Positions 25,316 through 34,620 of a stretch of 64,000 nucleotides of DNA are shown here, piece by piece. A program made the position numbers and the translations under genes. This DNA comes from Chryseobacterium sp. (lineage in GTDB: Bacteria; Bacteroidota; Bacteroidia; Flavobacteriales; Weeksellaceae). Numbering within the stretch: position 1 is the stretch's first letter; each line of letters opens with the position of its first letter. Below the pieces are notes generated by a model. That model searched no databases and was not told the origin of the DNA. It saw only the letters and a program-made list of their open reading frames with translations. The DNA lies in NCBI GenBank assembly GCA_027492795.1, contig JAPUEB010000024.1, forward strand, positions 62,001 to 126,000. The letters run 5' to 3'.

Positions 25316-27394
25316 TTATTGGGAAAACATTTTCATGATAAGACTAGAAAGCTTTTCCGCATTCGGAAGCATCGCTTTTTCGGACTCCATATTGATGGGA
25401 ACCGCAGGTAAATTCAATGAGCCTATTGTTTCTACAGGTGCGTCCAAATATTTAAAACAATTTTTTGAAATTCGGTGCGCAAAAGCTTCTGCAAAGGAAT
25501 TTTGAATTTGTTCTTCCGTTAAAACAATACACTTTCCGTGAAGTTTTACTCTTTCGTAAACCAATTCTTCATCTAAAGGAATCAAAGTTCTTAAATCAAT
25601 CACTTCCACTCGTCCGCCGAAGTTTTTCGCAGCTTCTTTTGCCCAGAAAACGCCCATTCCGTAAGTTACCACAACCAAAGTTCTACCTTTTTCGGTTTCT
25701 GTTTTATCAGCTTCTGCTACAATATTTGCTTTTCCGAAAGGTAAAATATAATCTTCTGCGGGTTCAATGGTTTTTGCGTCTTCCGTTCCCGGAACTTTGC
25801 TCCAGTAAAGACCTTTATGCTCCAACATTACTACCGGATTTGGATCGTAATAAGCCGCTTTCAATAAACCTTTAAAATCTGCGGCGTTGCTTGGATAGGC
25901 GATTTTTATCCCTTTAATATTTGCCAAAAGACTTTCCACACTTCCGCTGTGATAAGGGCCTCCTCCTCCGTAAGCTCCAGTTGGAACACGAATAATGTTG
26001 CTCACCGGAAATTTTCCCTGACTTAAATAACAGGATTTTGAAACTTCTGTAATCAATTGATTGATTCCCGGATAAATATAATCGGCGAACTGAACTTCTA
26101 CAATAGGTTTTAGTCCAACCGCACTCATTCCAACGGTAGAACCGATGATGTAGGCTTCCTGAATGGGTGTGTTGAAAACTCTTTTATTGCCAAATTTAGC
26201 ACCTAAAGTTACCGTTTCGCGGAAAACTCCGCCAATTCTTTCACCAACATCCTGTCCGTAAAGCAACGCTTCCGGATGTTTCCACATGATTTCCTGAATG
26301 GCGTGAATTGCAGCATCTACCATCACAATTTTTTCCGTTGCATCACTTGGAACTCTTGTTCCCACTTCCTCGGTAATTGGTGTTGGAACGAAAACGTGGT
26401 TTTCTACATCTTCGGGTTTTGGGTCATCTGCATTTTGGGCTTTTTCGAAGGCTTGTTCTATTTCCAAACGGGCTTTTTTCTCCATTTGTTTCAGCAATTC
26501 TTCATCAATGCCTTCTTCCTCCAACAAATATTTTCTTAATTTTAAATTGGGACACTGTGCGCGACATTTTTCCAGCTCTTCCTCTTCACGGTAAAATTCA
26601 CGGCGAACTCCGGAAGTATGGTGACCAATCAACACGGTTTTTGCACAAACGAGAAGCGGTTTTCTTTCGTTTCTTACAAAGTCTATCGCCTGTTTCATGG
26701 CTTCGTAACTTTCTACAAAATTGGTTCCGTCCACACGCATTCTGTTTAGTCCAATAAAACCTGCTGCAAAATCATACGCGTCGGAAGTTCTGGCTTCCTC
26801 TTTGGTAACGGAAATTCCCCATTCATTGTCCTGAACCAGAAAAATAATCGGCAACTGATGCAGCGCTGCAAACTGAAACGCTTCTGAAACTTCGCCTTCC
26901 GTAATGGAATTGTCGCCAAAACTGCAAACCACCACCGGATTTTTTTCAAATGTTTGAAGATTAAATTCCTGAATATACTTTATTCCCTGTGCAACTCCCG
27001 TTGTTGGGATTCCCTGCATTCCGGTGGCAGAACTTTGATGAATAATTTTCGGTTTATCCTCTTCCCGACTGGAAGGATGCGAATAATAGGAACGACCACC
27101 CGAAAAAGGATCGTCTTTTTTTGCCAACAGCTGCAGCATCAGTCGATACGGTTCCCAACCCATTCCCAAAAGCATACTTTCATCCCGATAATACGGCGAA
27201 ACCCAATCTTCCTTCGTCAAATGATACGCTGTAGCCAACTGAATGGCTTCGTGACCGCGCGAAGTAGAGTGCACATATTTGGTAATCGGTCTGTTTTCTT
27301 CATAAATATCTGCCATTGCTTTAGCAAGCATCATATGGTTGTAGGCCTTCAAAAGGACGTCTTGTAAAACGGTTGGTTTTGTGTCAAATTCCAT
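25316..27394 (-). CDS. Fused alpha/beta E1 component of a 2-oxoacid (branched-chain) dehydrogenase
   Basis: 692 residues. Start taken at MEFDTKPTVLQDVLLKAYNH (27394), which lies five bases after a TATCTTTG box; the frame to 27457 runs past the promoter. The N-terminal half is E1-alpha (YYRDESMLLGMG, TPP/Mg motif CSFGDNSITEGEVSEAF ... QDNEWGIS). The C-terminal half (from about 365) is E1-beta (LYGQDVGERIGGVFRET, VFNTPIQEAYIIGSTVGMSA, EVQFADYIYPGINQL, VRVPTGAYGGGGPYHS-like). It decarboxylates 2-oxoacids with thiamine diphosphate and passes the acyl group to E2 lipoyl. The branched-chain assignment is inferred; E2 and E3 are not nearby. Confidence 0.92.
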   Translation of the reverse strand: MEFDTKPTVLQDVLLKAYNHMMLAKAMADIYEENRPITKYVHSTSRGHEAIQLATAYHLTKEDWVSPYYRDESMLLGMGWEPYRLMLQLLAKKDDPFSGGRSYYSHPSSREEDKPKIIHQSSATGMQGIPTTGVAQGIKYIQEFNLQTFEKNPVVVCSFGDNSITEGEVSEAFQFAALHQLPIIFLVQDNEWGISVTKEEARTSDAYDFAAGFIGLNRMRVDGTNFVESYEAMKQAIDFVRNERKPLLVCAKTVLIGHHTSGVRREFYREEEELEKCRAQCPNLKLRKYLLEEEGIDEELLKQMEKKARLEIEQAFEKAQNADDPKPEDVENHVFVPTPITEEVGTRVPSDATEKIVMVDAAIHAIQEIMWKHPEALLYGQDVGERIGGVFRETVTLGAKFGNKRVFNTPIQEAYIIGSTVGMSAVGLKPIVEVQFADYIYPGINQLITEVSKSCYLSQGKFPVSNIIRVPTGAYGGGGPYHSGSVESLLANIKGIKIAYPSNAADFKGLLKAAYYDPNPVVMLEHKGLYWSKVPGTEDAKTIEPAEDYILPFGKANIVAEADKTETEKGRTLVVVTYGMGVFWAKEAAKNFGGRVEVIDLRTLIPLDEELVYERVKLHGKCIVLTEEQIQNSFAEAFAHRISKNCFKYLDAPVETIGSLNLPAVPINMESEKAMLPNAEKLSSLIMKMFSQ

Positions 27395-27399
27395 AGAAA

Positions 27400-27407
27400 C
27401 AAAGATA
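27400..27407 (-). promoter_or_regulatory. -7 element of the E1 dehydrogenase-Crp operon
   Basis: TATCTTTG on the minus strand, five bases before the ATG at 27394; implies a leaderless mRNA. Confidence 0.5.
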
Positions 27408-27537
27408 ATGATTTTTTGTAGAGTTCTATATGATGTGTTTTCAATGATAATCCACAACTTGAATTTTTGCGATTTTTAGTTAATCAAAAACAATTTTTTT
27501 TGGATCATATCTTTCTTTATGTTCACAATTCTTTTTA

Positions 27538-27684
27538 ATGTTGTTTGAAAATCCAAAAGTTTGCAGAAAAATGTGCATGGTGTTAAAACCCATCTTGAAC
27601 CTCTGTACAGAAAGCACCGTTTTCGAGAAGTTCGTCCTGAAGAATTGGGGGCAGTGTTTTTCAGAAGGTTTTGAAAATACCTAA
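27538..27684 (+). CDS. Unrecognised 48-codon ORF upstream of cas12a
   Basis: An ATG frame of 48 residues with four Cys (MLFENPKVCRKMC then MVLKPILNLC ... NWGQCFSEGF). The stretch 27541-27665 has a visibly higher GC content than the AT-rich DNA on either side, which is why I list it. A weak TATCTTTC box lies 22 bases upstream. No family is recognised and no Shine-Dalgarno-like sequence is clear. It may be a remnant of an older gene or pure chance. Confidence 0.2.
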   Translation: MLFENPKVCRKMCMVLKPILNLCTESTVFEKFVLKNWGQCFSEGFENT

Positions 27685-27700
27685 AAAAATTAGATAATTG

Positions 27701-27751
27701 ATTTTTTTTCGATACAGGTTTTATAACTCAATCTACAATAGTAGAAATTTA
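27701..27751 (-). ncRNA. Solitary CRISPR-handle copy with guide-like tail (CreR-like candidate)
   Basis: On the minus strand, 27751 down to 27731 matches the last 21 bases of the array repeat exactly, including the whole mature Cas12a crRNA handle AATTTCTACTATTGTAGAT. The other 15 bases of the 36-base repeat are not conserved. The bases that follow begin TGAGTTATAAAACCTGTATC and would be the guide. Its first seven bases match a TTTA-flanked site in the cas12a leader (27801-27807). Known crRNA-like regulatory RNAs of Cas systems have this design. Transcription is not shown; no convincing minus-strand promoter is visible. Confidence 0.6.
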
Positions 27752-27775
27752 TGGCGTAAAATTAAATTATTTTTT

Positions 27776-27783
27776 TATTTTTG
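27776..27783 (+). promoter_or_regulatory. -7 element of cas12a
   Basis: TATTTTTG 38 bases before the cas12a ATG. No TTG -33 box at the expected distance. The start of transcription would fall near 27788-27791. Confidence 0.5.
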
Positions 27784-27787
27784 AAAA

Positions 27788-27811
27788 TATATTTACAGAT
27801 TAACTCATAAA
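27788..27811 (-). promoter_or_regulatory. Putative Cas12a self-binding site in the cas12a leader
   Basis: On the minus strand, TTTA (complement of 27808-27811) is a canonical Cas12a PAM and is followed directly by TGAGTTA, the first seven bases of the guide-like tail at 27730. Pairing stops after position 7, which would suit binding without cleavage. The site sits at the predicted transcription start and 5' untranslated region of cas12a. Confidence 0.5.
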
Positions 27812-27821
27812 AATAAATATC

Positions 27822-30800
27822 ATGAAGAATTTAACACATCAATTTCCTCTTTCCAAAACACTTCGCTTTGAACTGATTCCACAAGGAAGAACATTGGAAT
27901 TTATCCAAAAAAATGGATTGCTTTCAGAAGATGAGCAACGCGCCATCAAATATCAGGAAGTAAAAAAACTGATTGACAATTATCACAGAACTTTTATAGA
28001 TGCCGCATTAATAGGTTTGCATTTTAATGATATTAGTAGATATGAAGAATTATACTTTCTTCCAAATAAAAACGATGAAGAAAAAGCAGCATTGAAAGAA
28101 CTACAAAGAATGATGCGTTCGAAAGTTGCAGCCCGATTTTCCAAAAATCCCTCAAAGGAAATTACAGAAAGGTTTCAGAATATTTTCAAGAAAGAATTAA
28201 TCAAGAATGATCTTCCAGAGTATCTTGACAATGATGAAGAAAAGAAAACGGTGGCAGAGTTTGATAGTTTCACGACCTATTTTTCCGGATTTTACACCAA
28301 TCGTGCGAATATGTATTCCGCTGATGAAAAATCTACGGCAATTTCTTATCGGATTGTCCATGAAAATTTGCCAAAATTTTTGTCGAACAAAAGAGTTTTC
28401 GAGAAATTAAAAAAAAATTATCCTGAACTAATAATAGAAGCAATTAAAGAAGTCCAACCGATTTTGCAAGGTGTCGAACTGGAATCAATGTTTAAGGTGG
28501 AGTATTTTAATCAGTGTTATCGCCAGTGTGAAATTGAATTTTATAATCTAATGATTGGTGGGAGAAGGGAAGAGAATTCATCGCCAGTTCGGGGTTTTAA
28601 CCAAATAATCAACCTTTATCGCCAAAAACATAAACTCAAAAAAACTGATATTCCCAATCTGACTGTTTTGTATAAACAGATTTTGAGCGAAAAAGAAAGT
28701 ATGTCTTGGTTGCCGGACCAATTCGAAAACGACCAAGAAGTTTTGGAAAGCATTGAAAGTTTCTATCAATCAGAATTGCTAAATTTTGAAACAGGAACTG
28801 AGAATATTAATGTTTTTGCTCAAATCAAAAAACATTTTGCCGAACTAAATTCTTTTGATTTGTCCAGAATTTTTGTTCGCAATGATCTTTCTTTGACTCA
28901 GATTTCTCAACTAATTTTTAGAGATTGGTCTCTTATTAAGACTTCTCTTGAAGTGAAATACGAACAGGATTATCCGAATTGGGAGAAAACCAAAAAAGAA
29001 ATAGAAGAAAAAGAAAAATTTCTGAAAAAAGCTTTTTTCAGTATCGAAGAAATTCAAGATGCGCTCGATTTTTACGTAATCACAAATGAGGAACTGAAAA
29101 GTTTTGCAGGAAAATCAATTTTATGTGAATACTTTCAATCGTTCTTAGGGTCAGAGAAAGAGGGAGTTCCGGATTTTTTTGCGAATATTTCAGAAAGGTA
29201 CGAAAGTATAACGAACCTTTTGAATTCAGATTATCCTTCGGATGAAAATCTGGCTACTGACGAAGTTTCTATTGAAAAAATAAAAAATTTCTTGGATGCG
29301 CTGCTTGGTTTTCAACAGTTTATAAAACCATTAAACGCTCAGAGACTGGAAGCCGAAAAAGACGAAGCATTTTATAATGATTTTAATCTGCTTTTTGACC
29401 AAGTTTCTAAGATTATTCCCCTTTATGATAAAGTGAGAAATTATCTTACCAGAAAACCATATTCCACCAAAAAATACAAACTGAATTTTGAAAATTCCAC
29501 GCTCATGGATGGTTGGGATTTAAACAAAGAAGCCGATAACACAACAGTTTTATTGAGAAAGCATGGAAAATACTTTTTAGGAATTATGAACAAAAAGTAT
29601 AATAAAATATTTAAAGAATATCCTTATGATTCAAACGGGAAAAACTTTGAAAAAATTATTTATAAACTTCTTCCTGGTGCAAATAAAATGTTACCGAAGG
29701 TTTTTCTTTCTAACAAAGGAATCCAGAATTTCAAACCATCGCAAGAAATTCAGGATAACTATAAAAGGGAAACACATAAAAAGGGAGCCCTGTTTGTGAA
29801 ACAAGATTGCCATAAATTGATTGATTTCTTTAAAAAATCCATCAAGAAACATGAAGATTGGTTGAAGTTTGGCTTTGAATTTTCAGATACCAAAAATTAT
29901 GAAGATTTAAGCGGTTTTTATCGAGAGGTTGAAAATCAAGGATATAAAATTACATTTGACGATGTTTCGGAAGATTATATTAACAAAATGGTAGATGAAG
30001 GGAAACTCTATTTATTTAAGATTTATAACAAAGATTTTTCGTCATATAGTAAGGGAAAACCGAATATGCACACGCTGTATTGGCAGATGCTTTTTGATGA
30101 AGAAAACTTAAAAAACGTCGTATATAAATTGAACGGACAAGCTGAAGTTTTTTACCGAAAAAAATCGATAACCAAAAACATCATTACACACAATGCCCAT
30201 AAAGGAATTCCTAACAAAAATACGCTCAATCCAAAGAAGGAAAGCACTTTTGATTACGATATCATAAAAGACAAAAGGTTTACCGAAGATAAATTTCAGT
30301 TTCACGTTCCGATAACGATGAATTTTCAGTCGAAAGGAAACGGAAATATTAATCAAACTGTAAATGAATATCTAAAAAACACCAATGATGAAATAAAAGT
30401 TATCGGTATCGACCGCGGTGAAAGACATTTGCTTTATTTTACCTTAATCAATCAAAATGGTGGAATCATCAAGCAGTTTTCCTTGAACGAAATCGAAAGC
30501 AACAATTTCAAAACAGATTATCATCTGTTGTTAGACGAAAAAGAAAAAGGAAGACAAGCCGCCAGAAAATCATGGAAAACCATCGAGAATATTAAAGAAC
30601 TTAAAGAAGGTTATCTGAGCCAAATTGTACATCAGATCGCAAAATTAATTGTGGATCACAATGCAATCGTGGTTTTGGAAGATTTGAATTTCGGTTTTAA
30701 ACGTGGGCGTTTCAAGGTGGAAAAACAAGTCTATCAAAAATTTGAAAAAATGCTGATTGACAAACTAAATTATTTGGTTTTCAAGGAGAAAAATAATACA

Positions 30801-31550
30801 GAATATGGTGGTTTGCTCAATGCTTATCAACTTACTAATAAATTCGAGAGCTTCCAGAAATTAGGCAAACAAAGCGGCATCCTTTATTATGTTCCAGCAT
30901 GGAACACGAGTAAGATAGACCCTGAAACCGGTTTTGTTAATTTATTTTTTAACAAGTATGAAAATCTGGAAAAAGCCAAGGAATTTTTTGGCAAATTTAA
31001 GTCGATTTCATTCAATACGAATGAAAACCATTTCGAGTTCGATTTTGACTACGGCGATTTCACCAGAAAAGCGGAAGGCAGCCGAAGAAACTGGACTGTG
31101 TGTACCTACGGAAAAAGAATTGTTTCCTATCGGAATCCGCAAAAAAACAGCGAATGGGATTATAAAAACGTTATTTTAACAGAAGAATTTCAAAAACTGT
31201 TTCAAGAAAATGGAATTGATATTTCAAAGGATCTGCAAAAGCAGATTTTAGAAAAAAACAATGCCGATTTCTTCAAAAAACTGATGGATTTGTACCGACT
31301 TACTTTACAGATGAGAAATTCCGACAAAAATCAAGATTATTTGATTTCTCCCGTGAAAAATAAAAATGGAAAATTCTATAATAGTGAAGAAGCAAAAGAA
31401 ATATTGCCTGAAAATGCAGATGCGAATGGTGCTTATCACATCGCAAAAAAGGGACTTTGGGTGTTGGAGCAAATCAGCAAAACAAAGGATTTGAAAAAAC
31501 TGAAACTGGCAATTTCCAATGAAGATTGGCTGAATTTTGTGCAACAGTAA
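27822..31550 (+). CDS. cas12a: CRISPR-associated endonuclease Cas12a (Cpf1)
   Basis: 1242-residue RNA-guided nuclease of type V-A, in the range of known orthologues (about 1200-1300). N-terminal signature KNLTHQFPLSKTLRFELIPQG, PAM-reading region GKYFLGIMNKKYNKIF and KLLPGANKMLPKVFLS. The crRNA-processing/WED region is around residues 790-815 (H790, THNAHKG, NPKKES). The RuvC site is intact: D864 (IGIDRGERH), E953 (VVLEDLNFGF), D1200 (ENADANGAYHIA), with the Nuc-lobe Arg R1165 in LQMRNS. So it should be catalytically active for both crRNA maturation and DNA cleavage, with a T-rich PAM. It is followed by cas4-cas1-cas2 and the array on the same strand. Confidence 0.98.
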   Translation: MKNLTHQFPLSKTLRFELIPQGRTLEFIQKNGLLSEDEQRAIKYQEVKKLIDNYHRTFIDAALIGLHFNDISRYEELYFLPNKNDEEKAALKELQRMMRSKVAARFSKNPSKEITERFQNIFKKELIKNDLPEYLDNDEEKKTVAEFDSFTTYFSGFYTNRANMYSADEKSTAISYRIVHENLPKFLSNKRVFEKLKKNYPELIIEAIKEVQPILQGVELESMFKVEYFNQCYRQCEIEFYNLMIGGRREENSSPVRGFNQIINLYRQKHKLKKTDIPNLTVLYKQILSEKESMSWLPDQFENDQEVLESIESFYQSELLNFETGTENINVFAQIKKHFAELNSFDLSRIFVRNDLSLTQISQLIFRDWSLIKTSLEVKYEQDYPNWEKTKKEIEEKEKFLKKAFFSIEEIQDALDFYVITNEELKSFAGKSILCEYFQSFLGSEKEGVPDFFANISERYESITNLLNSDYPSDENLATDEVSIEKIKNFLDALLGFQQFIKPLNAQRLEAEKDEAFYNDFNLLFDQVSKIIPLYDKVRNYLTRKPYSTKKYKLNFENSTLMDGWDLNKEADNTTVLLRKHGKYFLGIMNKKYNKIFKEYPYDSNGKNFEKIIYKLLPGANKMLPKVFLSNKGIQNFKPSQEIQDNYKRETHKKGALFVKQDCHKLIDFFKKSIKKHEDWLKFGFEFSDTKNYEDLSGFYREVENQGYKITFDDVSEDYINKMVDEGKLYLFKIYNKDFSSYSKGKPNMHTLYWQMLFDEENLKNVVYKLNGQAEVFYRKKSITKNIITHNAHKGIPNKNTLNPKKESTFDYDIIKDKRFTEDKFQFHVPITMNFQSKGNGNINQTVNEYLKNTNDEIKVIGIDRGERHLLYFTLINQNGGIIKQFSLNEIESNNFKTDYHLLLDEKEKGRQAARKSWKTIENIKELKEGYLSQIVHQIAKLIVDHNAIVVLEDLNFGFKRGRFKVEKQVYQKFEKMLIDKLNYLVFKEKNNTEYGGLLNAYQLTNKFESFQKLGKQSGILYYVPAWNTSKIDPETGFVNLFFNKYENLEKAKEFFGKFKSISFNTNENHFEFDFDYGDFTRKAEGSRRNWTVCTYGKRIVSYRNPQKNSEWDYKNVILTEEFQKLFQENGIDISKDLQKQILEKNNADFFKKLMDLYRLTLQMRNSDKNQDYLISPVKNKNGKFYNSEEAKEILPENADANGAYHIAKKGLWVLEQISKTKDLKKLKLAISNEDWLNFVQQ

Positions 31551-31599
31551 AAGCAGAAAAAAAAATCTTTGACATTTTGGAAAATAAAATTTTAGATAA

Positions 31600-32160
31600 A
31601 TGGAAAACTATATTCCCATATCATTTCTGAACGACTTTATTTTTTGTCCGCGATCTATTTACAATCATCAGTTGTATGCCAACTTCGATAAAATGATGTA
31701 TCAGGACAAAGTGCAGTTGGAAGGTTTGTCTGCACACGAAGCCATTGATAAGAAAAGGTATTCTGACAAGACTACCATTTTGCAAAATTTTGAAGTTTAT
31801 AGTGATGAATTCGGTTTGTTTGGAAAATTAGATGTTTTTGATGTAGAGAAAAAAACTTTAACCGAAAGAAAGAATCGGGTAAAAACCATATACGATGGCT
31901 ATTACCTTCAGTTGTATGCACAGTATTTCGGATTGCGAGAAATGGGATTTCAGGTGGAGCATTTGATCATCTATGAATTTACCAAAAACAAATCTTATCC
32001 TATAGAGTTGCCGGAAAATAATCTGCGGATGTTCGAAAAATTCAAACAAACGATTTTGGAAATTAGAAATTATTCTTTGCTTGGGAGTTCATTTCTCCCC
32101 AATAAAGCAAAGTGCGACAAATGTATTTATAACCTTTTATGTGATTTATCATTATGCTAA
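31600..32160 (+). CDS. cas4: CRISPR-associated exonuclease Cas4
   Basis: 186-residue RecB-family nuclease that trims and orients prespacers by PAM for integration by Cas1-Cas2. The four cluster cysteines are C16 (IFCPRS) and C172, C175, C181 (KCDKCIYNLLC). The nuclease core has GKLDVFD, the ERK triad and QLYAQY (QxxxY). It begins 49 bases after cas12a and overlaps cas1 by seven bases, consistent with one cas operon. Confidence 0.96.
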   Translation: MENYIPISFLNDFIFCPRSIYNHQLYANFDKMMYQDKVQLEGLSAHEAIDKKRYSDKTTILQNFEVYSDEFGLFGKLDVFDVEKKTLTERKNRVKTIYDGYYLQLYAQYFGLREMGFQVEHLIIYEFTKNKSYPIELPENNLRMFEKFKQTILEIRNYSLLGSSFLPNKAKCDKCIYNLLCDLSLC

Positions 32161-33125
32161 GTTTTCCCGATTACCATAAGAAAAGAATACTGGTAGTAAA
32201 CAGTACCCAAAGTCAGAAATTTGCGATAAAGAATGATAACCTCGTTGTAAAAGACGAGGAAGATAAAATTATTTTGCAGGATACCTGTTTTCGAATCTTA
32301 TCGGTTTGGATTATTGGCAACTGCTCTATAACGAGTGTTTTGCTGAAGAAAAGTAAGAAACACGGTTTTCCAATTTTTCACCTTACAACCAATTTTCGTC
32401 CCATTGGCATTTGGAATGCTCCAACGGAAGGCAATTTTCTATTGCGTTACAAACAATATCACTATAAAGGAAAAGAGGTTGCGAAAAGAATTGTAGTGAA
32501 CAAAATTGCGAACCAGTTGCGGTTGCTGAAAGATATACGAAAGAAAACCAATGTAGAAACGGAAGCCATAGAAAATTTGGAAAATTATCTCCTGAAAATA
32601 AAAACATTAAACGATAATTGGAAAGAAATATTGGGAATTGAAGGCATCGCCAGCAAAGTTTTTTTCAATGCCTATTTTTGGAATATGAACTGGAAAGGAC
32701 GACAACCACGCTCAAAAACCAATGAAATAAATGTGTTGATGGATATTGGATACACCTTCGTTTTTTATTGGATAGAAAATATGCTGAATCTTTATGGTTT
32801 TGATGTTTACAAGGGTGTTTATCATCAAAATTTTTATCAAAGGAAAAGCTTGGTTTGCGATCTTATGGAGCCGTTTCGATGTATTATAGATAAACAAATT
32901 CGGAAAGCATGGAATTTGGGACAAATAAAATCGGAAGATTTCAATATTATCCGCACCAAGTACCAGTTGAAACCCGAAAAAAACAAGCAGTATATTCAAT
33001 GGTTGATGCAGGCAATTTTGGAACATAAATCGGATATTTTTTATTATTGTCGGGATTATTACAGAGCGTTCATCCGAGAGAAATCTGCAGAAGAATTTCC
33101 CTATTTTGATATCAAAAAACAATGA
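32154..33125 (+). CDS. cas1: CRISPR-associated endonuclease/integrase Cas1
   Basis: 323-residue integrase of spacer acquisition. Metal-binding residues are E163 (LGIEGIASKVFF), H224 (VYHQNFYQRKSLV) and D236/E239 (CDLMEPFR), the usual Cas1 set, all intact. The N-terminal beta domain is at about 1-85, the helical catalytic domain after it. The ATG overlaps the cas4 stop (ATGCTAA), which suggests translational coupling. Cas2 follows after three bases. Confidence 0.97.
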   Translation: MLSFPDYHKKRILVVNSTQSQKFAIKNDNLVVKDEEDKIILQDTCFRILSVWIIGNCSITSVLLKKSKKHGFPIFHLTTNFRPIGIWNAPTEGNFLLRYKQYHYKGKEVAKRIVVNKIANQLRLLKDIRKKTNVETEAIENLENYLLKIKTLNDNWKEILGIEGIASKVFFNAYFWNMNWKGRQPRSKTNEINVLMDIGYTFVFYWIENMLNLYGFDVYKGVYHQNFYQRKSLVCDLMEPFRCIIDKQIRKAWNLGQIKSEDFNIIRTKYQLKPEKNKQYIQWLMQAILEHKSDIFYYCRDYYRAFIREKSAEEFPYFDIKKQ

Positions 33126-33128
33126 ACC

Positions 33129-33401
33129 GTGATAATTCTTACCTACGACATTTCGGACAATAAGCTTCGAACACGCTTTTCTAAGTTTCTTGAAAAATAC
33201 GGATACCGTTTACAATACTCCGTTTTCGAAATCAATAATAGCAAGCGTATTCTGTCTTTAATTCAGGAAGAGATAAAATCGAGATTCTCGAAGTGCTTTT
33301 CTGAAACTGACAGCGTGATGATATTTGATATGAGCGAAACTTGCAAAATCACTAAATACGGTTATGCAAAACATCAGGACGAAGATTTTATTATATTGTG
33401 A
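33129..33401 (+). CDS. cas2: CRISPR-associated Cas2
   Basis: 90-residue ferredoxin-fold protein that bridges Cas1 dimers. The N-terminus is IILTYDISDNKLRTRFSKFLEKYG, with the conserved Asp at position 7, followed by LQYSVFEIN. The start is GTG at 33129, three bases after the cas1 stop; no ATG is available before the conserved first strand. Confidence 0.95.
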   Translation: MIILTYDISDNKLRTRFSKFLEKYGYRLQYSVFEINNSKRILSLIQEEIKSRFSKCFSETDSVMIFDMSETCKITKYGYAKHQDEDFIIL

Positions 33402-33576
33402 AAAAAATGCTACATTTGTCTATTGGTCTTTGAAACAAAAAACTGCAAACCTCGGTCTTAATAATTTTTAACATCAAAACTCAGGAAGAAATGTCGAAAA
33501 AAATACATTGGAATGGTAAAACATCCTTTAAAATAGCATTTTCGAGTTGTTTTTCTGCCAATTTTTCCGATTTAGA
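33402..33576 (+). promoter_or_regulatory. CRISPR leader
   Basis: AT-rich non-coding DNA between cas2 and the first repeat. A TACATTTG -7-like box lies at 33411-33418 without a well-placed TTG; the array promoter could be this one or nearer the first repeat. The leader side is inferred from repeat orientation (handle at the 3' end of each repeat) and the decayed repeat at the far end. Confidence 0.6.
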
Positions 33577-33934
33577 GTTTTGAAGACCAATTAAATTTCT
33601 ACTATTGTAGATCTTTGGAAGGCGATGCACTAGCTACAGAGTTTTGAAGACCAATTAAATTTCTACTATTGTAGATTTTTGGTAAGATAGCTATTAAGGA
33701 TGCAGTTTTGAAGACCAATTAAATTTCTACTATTGTAGATCATCGCCACTGCATTTTTACCAATAAGGAGTTTTGAAGACCAATTAAATTTCTACTATTG
33801 TAGATATTAAAAAGTTCGGTAAGGTAATCCTCTGTTTTGAAGACCAATTAAATTTCTACTATTGTAGATGAAGTGCTGCTTCGCGTTCCAAAAGTTCTGT
33901 TTTGAAGACCAATTAAATTTCTACTGTTGTTCGC
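33577..33934 (+). CRISPR. Type V-A CRISPR array, 6 repeats and 5 spacers
   Basis: 36-base repeats start at 33577, 33641, 33705, 33770, 33834 and 33899. The first five are identical and end in the Cas12a handle AATTTCTACTATTGTAGAT. Spacers are 28, 28, 29, 28 and 29 bases. The sixth repeat is decayed at its 3' end (CTACTGTTGTTCGC in place of CTACTATTGTAGAT), so its handle hairpin is lost, as is normal for the leader-distal end. I recognise no spacer target, and I noticed none inside this window. Confidence 0.98.
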
Positions 33935-34087
33935 AAACACACCTAAGACAATTTATCGAATATCATTGTGTCGTGTCACGAAGATAAACGATTTTCCAGA
34001 CAAAAAACCCACAGATTGATTCGCTCCCAGGTCAAACGTATTAAAATTTTATCTTAAATTTAAGTATTGAGTTGTTCTTTATACAAC

Positions 34088-34266
34088 GAAATATTTATGC
34101 AAAAAAAACCTTATTCCCTTAGTAAAATTTCGATTAAGGAACTACAAAAGCCTTTTCCCTTATTACAAAAAAAGCGATTTTCCTGATATATGGAATAAGG
34201 GTGAGCTTCATGCTCATGTAAAAAGTTACTAAAGGAATAAGGTTTTTTGATTCTCTGCTGCATTTT
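34088..34266. repeat. Dispersed palindromic element, copy B
   Basis: Homologous to 10845-11021 over its whole length. CCTTATTCC at 34109, a mutated CCTTTTCCC at 34151, and inverted GGAATAAGG at 34192 and 34234. It lies about 150 bases after the last CRISPR repeat and has no ORF. Confidence 0.7.
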
Positions 34267-34386
34267 GAGTCAACCTTTATTTTCAGCGGCTGAAAAGTAG
34301 AGTGCCTATTGGAATAAAGTATTTACAATCTTGTTTTCTTGTAAGGAATAAAGAATTCATGGTATCTAACCTATTTTTTAATGCGT

Positions 34387-34620
34387 TTGGTTTGCTTCGC
34401 TCCGCTCGCAATGACGGTTTCACAGAAATGTGGAAAACTCCATTTTTTTTACGGTAAATTTTCCTCTATTTTTACAAAAATAATCTGAATCGAGGAATAA
34501 GTTTTGATATTGGTTGACTACCCCGTCTTTCGAACAAGTTCGAAATCCACCCCTTCAAAGAAGGGGAGTTTTCAGTCTTCAATCTCGTGTCTCGAATCTA
34601 AAAATCTCAAATCTCCCAGA
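34387..34620. other. Repeat-rich region before dnaE
   Basis: No gene. It holds an inverted copy of the GTCATTGCGAGCG-type repeat (34387-34416), a hairpin TCGAAC/GTTCGA around 34530-34543, a second hairpin CCCCTT/AAGGGG (34550-34566) and a stretch with several ATCTCRAATCT-like words. The area 33935-34087 shows nothing recognisable. Confidence 0.45.

What the first reader, a model, noticed from the sequence alone, without database searches (positions are those of the whole stretch)
27701..27811. Solitary crRNA-like unit upstream of cas12a whose seed matches the cas12a leader next to a TTTA PAM
Seen: 27731-27751, read on the minus strand, equals the last 21 bases of the array repeat, which include the whole Cas12a handle. 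The other 15 repeat bases, removed during maturation, are not conserved. The next bases (guide position 1 onward) begin TGAGTTA, and the only nearby copy of this word, 27807 down to 27801 on the minus strand, is directly preceded by TTTA. Matching ends after seven bases. The site overlaps the predicted start of cas12a transcription (TATTTTTG at 27776-27783). Known: crRNA-like regulatory RNAs (CreR type) guide Cas effectors, including Cas12a, to their own promoters by partial seed pairing, giving repression without cutting. Inferred: this unit is such an autoregulator, a safeguard that would be relieved when effector is drawn off by crRNAs or an inhibitor. By rough estimate a 7-base seed match at a PAM in so short a region should happen by chance well under once in a hundred cases.
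Basis: partly seen in the sequence, partly recalled or inferred. Interest (0 to 1): 0.92.

Follow-up and report, generated by a model that had tools for sequence, protein, structure and literature searches.

The report
Self-repressing guide RNA of Cas12a (CreR-type)
Next to its cas12a gene this bacterium carries a lone guide-RNA unit whose first bases match the start region of cas12a, most likely so that Cas12a can sit on and turn down its own gene without cutting it; this kind of self-control is already known, and this looks like a new example.

Summary
On the minus strand 27751-27731 equals the last 21 bases of the type V-A repeat. The next seven bases (TGAGTTA) recur at 27807-27801, directly after TTTA (27811-27808), beside a -7-like box before cas12a.

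It is more than chance. TTTV-TGAGTTA occurs 6 times in the 2.96-Mb genome; 2 of 907 array spacers match their own cas12a leader this well.

Among 102 cas12a loci, 8 carry a solitary intact handle before cas12a. In 8 of 8 the guide matches a TTTA-flanked site 15-170 nt before the start, over 7-15 nt. In one orthologous pair handle-guide and target stay conserved (38/40, 20/21), the rest of the leader does not (91/198).

Best explanation: a CreR-type RNA by which Cas12a represses its own promoter. V-A CreR is in print, so this is a new member, with a divergent layout.

Weak points: the match is the shortest of the eight; a site inside another gene matches 8 nt; AsCas12a needs 17 nt for stable binding in vitro. 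No RNA or repression data exist here.

The parts
27731..27751 (-). Solitary Cas12a crRNA handle (TAAATTTCTACTATTGTAGAT)
   Evidence: Identical to the last 21 nt of the array repeat; the UCUAC/GUAGA hairpin is in the predicted fold, though the fold energy is no better than shuffles; only exact copy in the genome outside the array
27707..27730 (-). Guide of the crRNA-like RNA (24 nt: TGAGTTATAAAACCTGTATCGAAA); seed is 27730-27724
   Evidence: Follows the handle directly; nt 1-7 match the cas12a leader next to TTTA
27784..27807 (-). Target in the cas12a leader; 27807-27801 pairs with guide nt 1-7
   Evidence: one of six TTTV-TGAGTTA sites in the genome
27808..27811 (-). PAM, TTTA
   Evidence: Read directly; TTTA also at 7 of 7 relatives with a unit
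27776..27783 (+). -7-like box of the cas12a promoter, TATTTTTG (motif TAnnTTTG recalled for Bacteroidota)
   Evidence: Pattern match only; start of transcription would lie inside the target (inferred)
27757..27764 (-). Candidate -7-like box of the unit, TAATTTTA (one mismatch to TAnnTTTG), 7 nt before AATTTC
   Evidence: Pattern match only; exact boxes end 4-6 nt before the handle in L132, L027 and L041, 3 of 8 units against 2% of leader positions
27683..27709 (-). A-run / T-run that could fold and end the transcript (weak, A-U only)
   Evidence: Predicted fold; the terminator scan found none in 27395-27830
27822..31550 (+). cas12a, 1242 aa, the regulated gene and the effector
   Evidence: TIGR04330, 1485.7 bits, cut-off 300; solved Cas12a relatives
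31600..33401 (+). cas4, cas1, cas2
   Evidence: TIGR04328, TIGR04329, TIGR01573
33577..33934 (+). CRISPR array, six repeats, the last one degenerate

Best explanation
A CreR-type autoregulatory RNA of a type V-A system. A short RNA is transcribed on the minus strand from between the PDH E1 gene and cas12a, starting at or near the handle (inferred). Cas12a takes it up by the handle, as it would a crRNA (inferred). Guide nt 1-7 pair with the cas12a leader next to a TTTA PAM (the sequence match is shown). Since pairing ends after seven bases, Cas12a should not cut but should sit briefly over the cas12a start of transcription and hinder RNA polymerase (inferred). When array crRNAs or an anti-CRISPR tie up Cas12a, repression is relieved (by analogy with published CreR).
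For: Exact 21-nt handle, followed at once by a guide whose seed matches the cas12a leader beside TTTA. Chance is low: 2 of 907 array spacers reach 7 or more; six such sites in 2.96 Mb. 8 of 8 solitary intact handles within 900 nt upstream of cas12a, among 102 loci, have a TTTA-flanked seed match of 7, 8, 9, 9, 9, 11, 12 and 15 nt at -15 to -170; L015 and L132 are orthologous, so these are seven distinct guides. Of four solitary intact handles elsewhere in the loci, three match their cas12a leader over 1, 2 and 3 nt and one has a masked guide. Footprint in the L015/L132 pair: target 20/21, handle+guide 38/40, rest of leader 91/198 paired columns. Matches end below 17 nt in 8 of 8, the length at which AsCas12a binds stably and cuts (PMC6050341, passages). 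An exact -10/-7 box ends 4-6 nt before the handle in 3 of 8 units, against 81 of 4102 leader positions (2%) for a box 4-7 nt before; the window has one 7 nt before with one mismatch. So the RNA would start at the handle. The window Cas12a aligns to a solved Cas12a (5ng6, recalled as FnCas12a) through the conserved H and K residues of the crRNA-processing site and the first RuvC Asp (the roles of these residues are recalled).
Against: Seven bases is the shortest match of the eight. A site inside a reading frame elsewhere (L134) matches 8 nt after TTTA, and the leader site has the fewest matches of the six genome sites over nt 1-16 (7, against 9-10), so seed pairing alone does not single out cas12a. 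AsCas12a did not bind stably below 17 matched nt in vitro. No RNA evidence. No close relative of the window locus with the unit was found: of 320 genomes in the family search only the window's own has Cas12a above the cut-off. Promoter boxes are pattern matches; the sigma-70-type scan found none on the minus strand and no terminator in 27395-27830. Targets lie within 35 nt of a box before cas12a in 5 of 8 loci, but so do 46% of random stretches of these leaders. The RNA folds no better than shuffles (z -0.07 to -1.16).
Confidence: 0.75

Rival explanations
1. Relic of an old CRISPR array or misplaced spacer integration, with the seed match a coincidence.
For: The window handle is identical to the array repeat over 21 nt, as a recent copy would be; solitary handles do occur near arrays (L042 and L069, 126 and 136 nt from an array); another genome site matches better.
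Against: No second repeat, and the first 15 repeat bases are gone. The solitary handles elsewhere that could be tested (3 of 4) show no leader match, while 8 of 8 leader handles do. In L015, L027, L041 and L068 the loop differs from the array repeat shown for that locus while the stem is kept, which fits selection on the handle rather than recent copying.
Confidence: 0.12
2. A decoy RNA that loads and occupies Cas12a (like phage Racrs, solitary repeat units that inhibit CRISPR-Cas) and does not act on the promoter.
For: Racrs are solitary repeats, viral ones often just behind a predicted promoter, and three V-A candidates inhibited a Moraxella bovoculi V-A system (PMC10651486, passages).
Against: The unit lies between a PDH E1 gene and cas12a; no search for prophages or acr genes was made. 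A decoy needs no PAM-flanked seed match in the leader, yet all 8 have one.
Confidence: 0.06
3. A CreA-like antitoxin guide that keeps a nearby toxin gene off.
For: CreA is a crRNA-like RNA that represses a toxin promoter through partial complementarity (review PMC12737573, passages).
Against: The target is the cas12a leader itself. Between 27458 and 27821 there is no reading frame of 60 aa; six frames of 23-48 aa were listed and not examined further. CreT acts as an RNA, so this is not excluded by frames alone.
Confidence: 0.03
4. The RNA mainly regulates another gene; the other TTTV-TGAGTTA sites are the true targets.
For: Five other sites exist, one with an 8-nt match (L134, inside a frame); two lie 36 and 51 nt before genes, a GyrB/ParE-like gene (L138) and a T9SS-sorted protein (L139).
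Against: Both upstream sites match 7 nt only. The one 10-nt match found, at GTTC, lies inside a coding frame. In the seven relatives the guide matches the cas12a leader; their genomes were not searched for other sites.
Confidence: 0.04

Closest known systems
CreR, cas-regulating RNA (Liu et al. 2023, Cell Host Microbe; not held, known here through passages of reviews PMC12737573 and PMC13131331)
   Same: crRNA-like RNA, partial complementarity to the cas promoter, reported for types I-B, I-E and V-A with Cas12a as the repressor.
   Different: Here the unit is divergent from cas12a, keeps only the 21-nt handle of the repeat and pairs over seven bases. Whether the printed V-A cases share these traits could not be checked.
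Cas9 autorepression (SpyCas9, cited in PMC13131331, passage; its long tracrRNA form, tracr-L, is recalled)
   Same: Effector represses its own gene; relieved by anti-CRISPRs.
   Different: Cas9; the guide is part of a long tracrRNA (recalled), with no solitary crRNA handle.
CreA of CreTA (type I; review PMC12737573, passages)
   Same: crRNA-like RNA with partial pairing at a promoter.
   Different: Represses a toxin, not cas; no toxin gene seen here.
Racr RNA anti-CRISPRs (PMC10651486, passages)
   Same: Solitary repeat unit, V-A cases known.
   Different: Carried by phages and other mobile elements; the I-F one described acts by binding Cas6f and Cas7f; no promoter target described in the passages seen.

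Membership tests
CreR (type V-A) | Solitary repeat-derived unit next to the cas operon | tested here: met
   27731-27751 minus, 70 nt between it and the cas12a start codon
CreR (type V-A) | Guide with partial, PAM-proximal complementarity to the cas promoter or leader, beside a proper PAM | tested here: met
   7 nt after TTTA at 27801-27811; 8 of 8 handle-bearing leaders; controls; but one other genome site matches 8 nt
CreR (type V-A) | Complementarity too short for cleavage | tested here: met
   7 nt here, 7-15 in all eight, against 17 for AsCas12a (PMC6050341)
CreR (type V-A) | Target overlaps promoter elements of the cas operon | tested here: inconclusive
   Target abuts TATTTTTG and covers the inferred start; box by pattern only, and nearness to a box is common by chance
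CreR (type V-A) | RNA expressed and bound by the effector | not testable with these tools
   No expression data
CreR (type V-A) | Represses cas; relieved by crRNAs or anti-CRISPR | not testable with these tools
   Needs a reporter experiment
CreA/CreTA | Toxin gene under the target promoter | tested here: inconclusive
   Target lies in the cas12a leader; no reading frame of 60 aa between 27458 and 27821; an RNA toxin or very short frame is not excluded
Racr | Carried by a virus or plasmid | tested here: inconclusive
   Neighbours are a PDH E1 gene and cas genes on a 253,167-base contig; no prophage search was made

The most novel reading that the evidence does not exclude
The divergent layout makes one R-loop a double switch: Cas12a bound at 27784-27811 covers the cas12a start and also the upstream element of the unit's own divergent promoter, so RNA and effector are shut off together. 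More generally, V-A regulatory guides may begin as ordinary spacers captured from the cell's own cas12a leader and be disarmed just beyond the seed: in L034, L035 and L068 guide and target continue to agree for 6, 7 and 6 nt once one extra guide base is skipped (seen after the fact, and a general test of similarity beyond the seed was mostly not significant).
Probability: 0.15. Interest if true: 0.65.

Novelty: new member of a known kind. Interest (0 to 1): 0.47.

Why it matters
It shows that self-repression of Cas12a by a solitary guide can be found by sequence alone. Eight cases with seven distinct guides keep the same rule: handle, TTTA, seed. It also poses a clear question: how can a seven-base match repress, and repress cas12a rather than other sites, when AsCas12a in vitro needs 17 for stable binding? 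The set gives natural variants (7 to 15 nt) to test the minimal pairing for repression without cutting.

Tried and rejected
Rfam search of 27000-34600 gave five hits, all below their gathering scores. Cas12a in viral contigs: 6 pattern matches, none a relative. Plasmids: one distant Cas12a, Butyrivibrio proteoclasticus, not examined for a unit. Better targets of the guide elsewhere in the genome: one 8-nt TTTA-flanked match (L134) and one 10-nt match at GTTC, both inside reading frames. The idea that each guide is a full copy of its target with a small insertion: not shown as a general rule. With free gaps, p ran from 0.002 to 0.92 over eight units, three below 0.05 (L035, L068, L132); by local alignment only L035 was below 0.05. 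Pairing beyond the seed is at chance, 21 of 72 against 22.2 expected. Near copies of the L015/L132 unit: in a pattern search of 16 genomes of that genus, only the starting genome had one. One of the five stretches folded (L132:3650-3750) was the wrong place.

Loci left out of the count of 102: ten re-found under another id, judged by equal contig length (L091, L092, L094, L096, L097, L100, L102, L116, L125, L126), the window's own copy (L089), and weak or C-terminal pieces (L090, L106, L108, L112, L114, L115, L119-L123, L131, L133). Two weak N-terminal pieces below the cut-off (L110, L130) are in the count; 99 of the 102 have at least 150 nt upstream. One search kept the best 80 of 131 relatives; the other 51 were not seen. 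The spacer control used the 60 loci with a readable downstream array.

Full report
What is there. The window holds a complete type V-A system: cas12a 27822-31550 (TIGR04330, 1485.7 bits), cas4, cas1, cas2 and an array of six repeats at 33577-33934, the last one degenerate. The genome is in the same phylum as G626, whose contig has the length of L050's record, titled Bacteroidetes bacterium. Between a PDH E1 gene (minus strand) and cas12a lies one more copy of the 3' end of the repeat, on the minus strand: 27751-27731, 21 of 21 bases. Bases 27730-27724 (TGAGTTA) are repeated at 27807-27801 on the same strand, preceded by TTTA. The finding is correct in each of these details.

Is it chance? Several measures agree. 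Shuffled guides gave a run of 7 in 0 of 2000 trials. Array spacers, the natural control, reach 7 or more in their own leader (-250..+30) in 2 of 907 cases, and in 7 of 907 for -700..+30. The window guide reached 7 in 1 of 98 foreign leaders (all). In the whole genome TTTV-TGAGTTA occurs 6 times; three of the other five sites lie inside reading frames and two before genes. Against uniqueness: one of those inside a frame (L134) matches 8 nt, and over nt 1-16 the leader site has 7 matches against 9, 10, 9, 10 and 10 for the others. So the leader site is there more often than chance allows, but it is not the strongest match that the guide has.

Comparison. I collected cas12a loci (80, the best of 131; 21 further), plus the window: 102 loci, 99 with at least 150 nt upstream. 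Within 900 nt before cas12a, 8 have an intact handle that is not part of an array: the window, L015, L027, L034, L035, L041, L068 and L132. For each the first guide bases match a site after TTTA, at -15, -170, -26, -21, -130, -134, -115 and -99, over 7, 11, 9, 9, 8, 15, 9 and 12 nt. Starts were moved to the nearest in-frame ATG; for L041 the ATG chosen lies inside the gene, so its distances are overestimated. Handles with mismatches and array elements in the same scan reach at most 6. Of the four solitary intact handles not in the leader, L017, L018 and L042 reach 1, 3 and 2, and the guide of L069 is masked. L042 and L069 lie beside an array, L017 near a contig end, where it may be part of one. 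So the rule is handle in the leader, then seed match in the leader.

Footprint. L015 and L132 are orthologous (cas12a 92.9% and 95.4% identical over 1668 and 1118 nt). Their leaders align poorly (91 of 198 paired columns outside the two blocks, 340 columns in all), but the target with its PAM is kept (20/21) and so are handle and guide (38/40). That is what a working pair should look like. The other guides differ from each other; the window's and L027's share TGAGTTAT at an offset of two, with the unit pointing opposite ways relative to cas12a, which I take for coincidence.

How it likely works. Cas12a processes and holds crRNAs by this handle (recalled). The UCUAC/GUAGA hairpin is in the predicted fold of the window RNA, though the energy is no better than shuffles. 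The window protein aligns with a solved Cas12a (5ng6) through the processing and first RuvC residues (identity as FnCas12a and roles recalled). An exact promoter box ends 4, 6 and 6 nt before the handle in L132, L027 and L041, and a one-mismatch box 7 nt before it in the window (the motifs TAnnTTTG and TATAAT are recalled). Only 81 of 4102 leader positions (2%) have such a box 4-7 nt before them. So the RNA may start at the handle, which would explain why the first 15 repeat bases are not kept. A sigma-70-type scan found no promoter on the minus strand here and no terminator. The target lies within about 35 nt of a box before cas12a in the window, L034, L035, L041 and L132, but 46% of random stretches in these leaders do too, so this is no evidence by itself. 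Pairing below 17 nt fits binding without cutting: AsCas12a needed 17 matched nt for stable binding and for cleavage (PMC6050341, passages read). The same result is the main argument against strong repression by seven bases; that test was in vitro with another ortholog.

Layout. In the seven relatives the unit points the same way as cas12a, and the site lies either between unit and gene (L027, L034, L035, L041) or upstream of the unit (L015, L068, L132). The window is the only divergent case among the eight. There the bound complex would cover the cas12a start and, by position, the upstream part of the unit's own promoter (inferred).

Known or new. Reviews describe CreR as a crRNA-like RNA in type I and V-A systems that represses cas operons (PMC12737573, passages; PMC13131331, passages: types I-B, I-E and V-A; PMC12948488, passages, names CreR without types). 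The primary paper (Liu et al. 2023) is not held, so I could not check which V-A species it treats or whether it has divergent cases. Five further searches were seen as listings, some cut (20 of 81, 15 of 361 and 12 of 107 rows); by title and abstract I saw no primary paper on V-A CreR among the rows listed. I file it as a new member of a known kind.

Noticed in passing
L034, L035, L068 (guide against target): Guide and target agree again for 6-7 nt after one extra guide base beyond the seed, giving 15 paired bases in all; L041 has 15 without a gap. Noted after the fact.
   Followed up: partly
L018:11019-11035: A solitary handle directly before cas4 instead of cas12a, with a 6-nt TTTA-flanked match about 160 nt upstream; only 3 nt match in the cas12a leader.
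   Followed up: partly
L019, L052, L075: Single array spacers with 8-nt TTTV-flanked matches to their own cas12a leader; probably chance, but could be regulatory spacers inside arrays.
   Followed up: no
window 33899-33934: The last repeat of the array has lost the end of its handle (CTGTTGTTCGC), a usual sign of the leader-distal end (recalled).
   Followed up: no
L134, L138 and L139 around 1501: Other TTTV-TGAGTTA sites of the genome: an 8-nt match inside a reading frame (L134), and 7-nt matches 36 and 51 nt before a GyrB/ParE-like gene and a T9SS-sorted protein; possible side targets of the RNA.
   Followed up: partly
window 27730-27723 and L027 guide: The two guides share TGAGTTAT at an offset of two, although the records are from different phyla by label and the units point opposite ways.
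   Followed up: no
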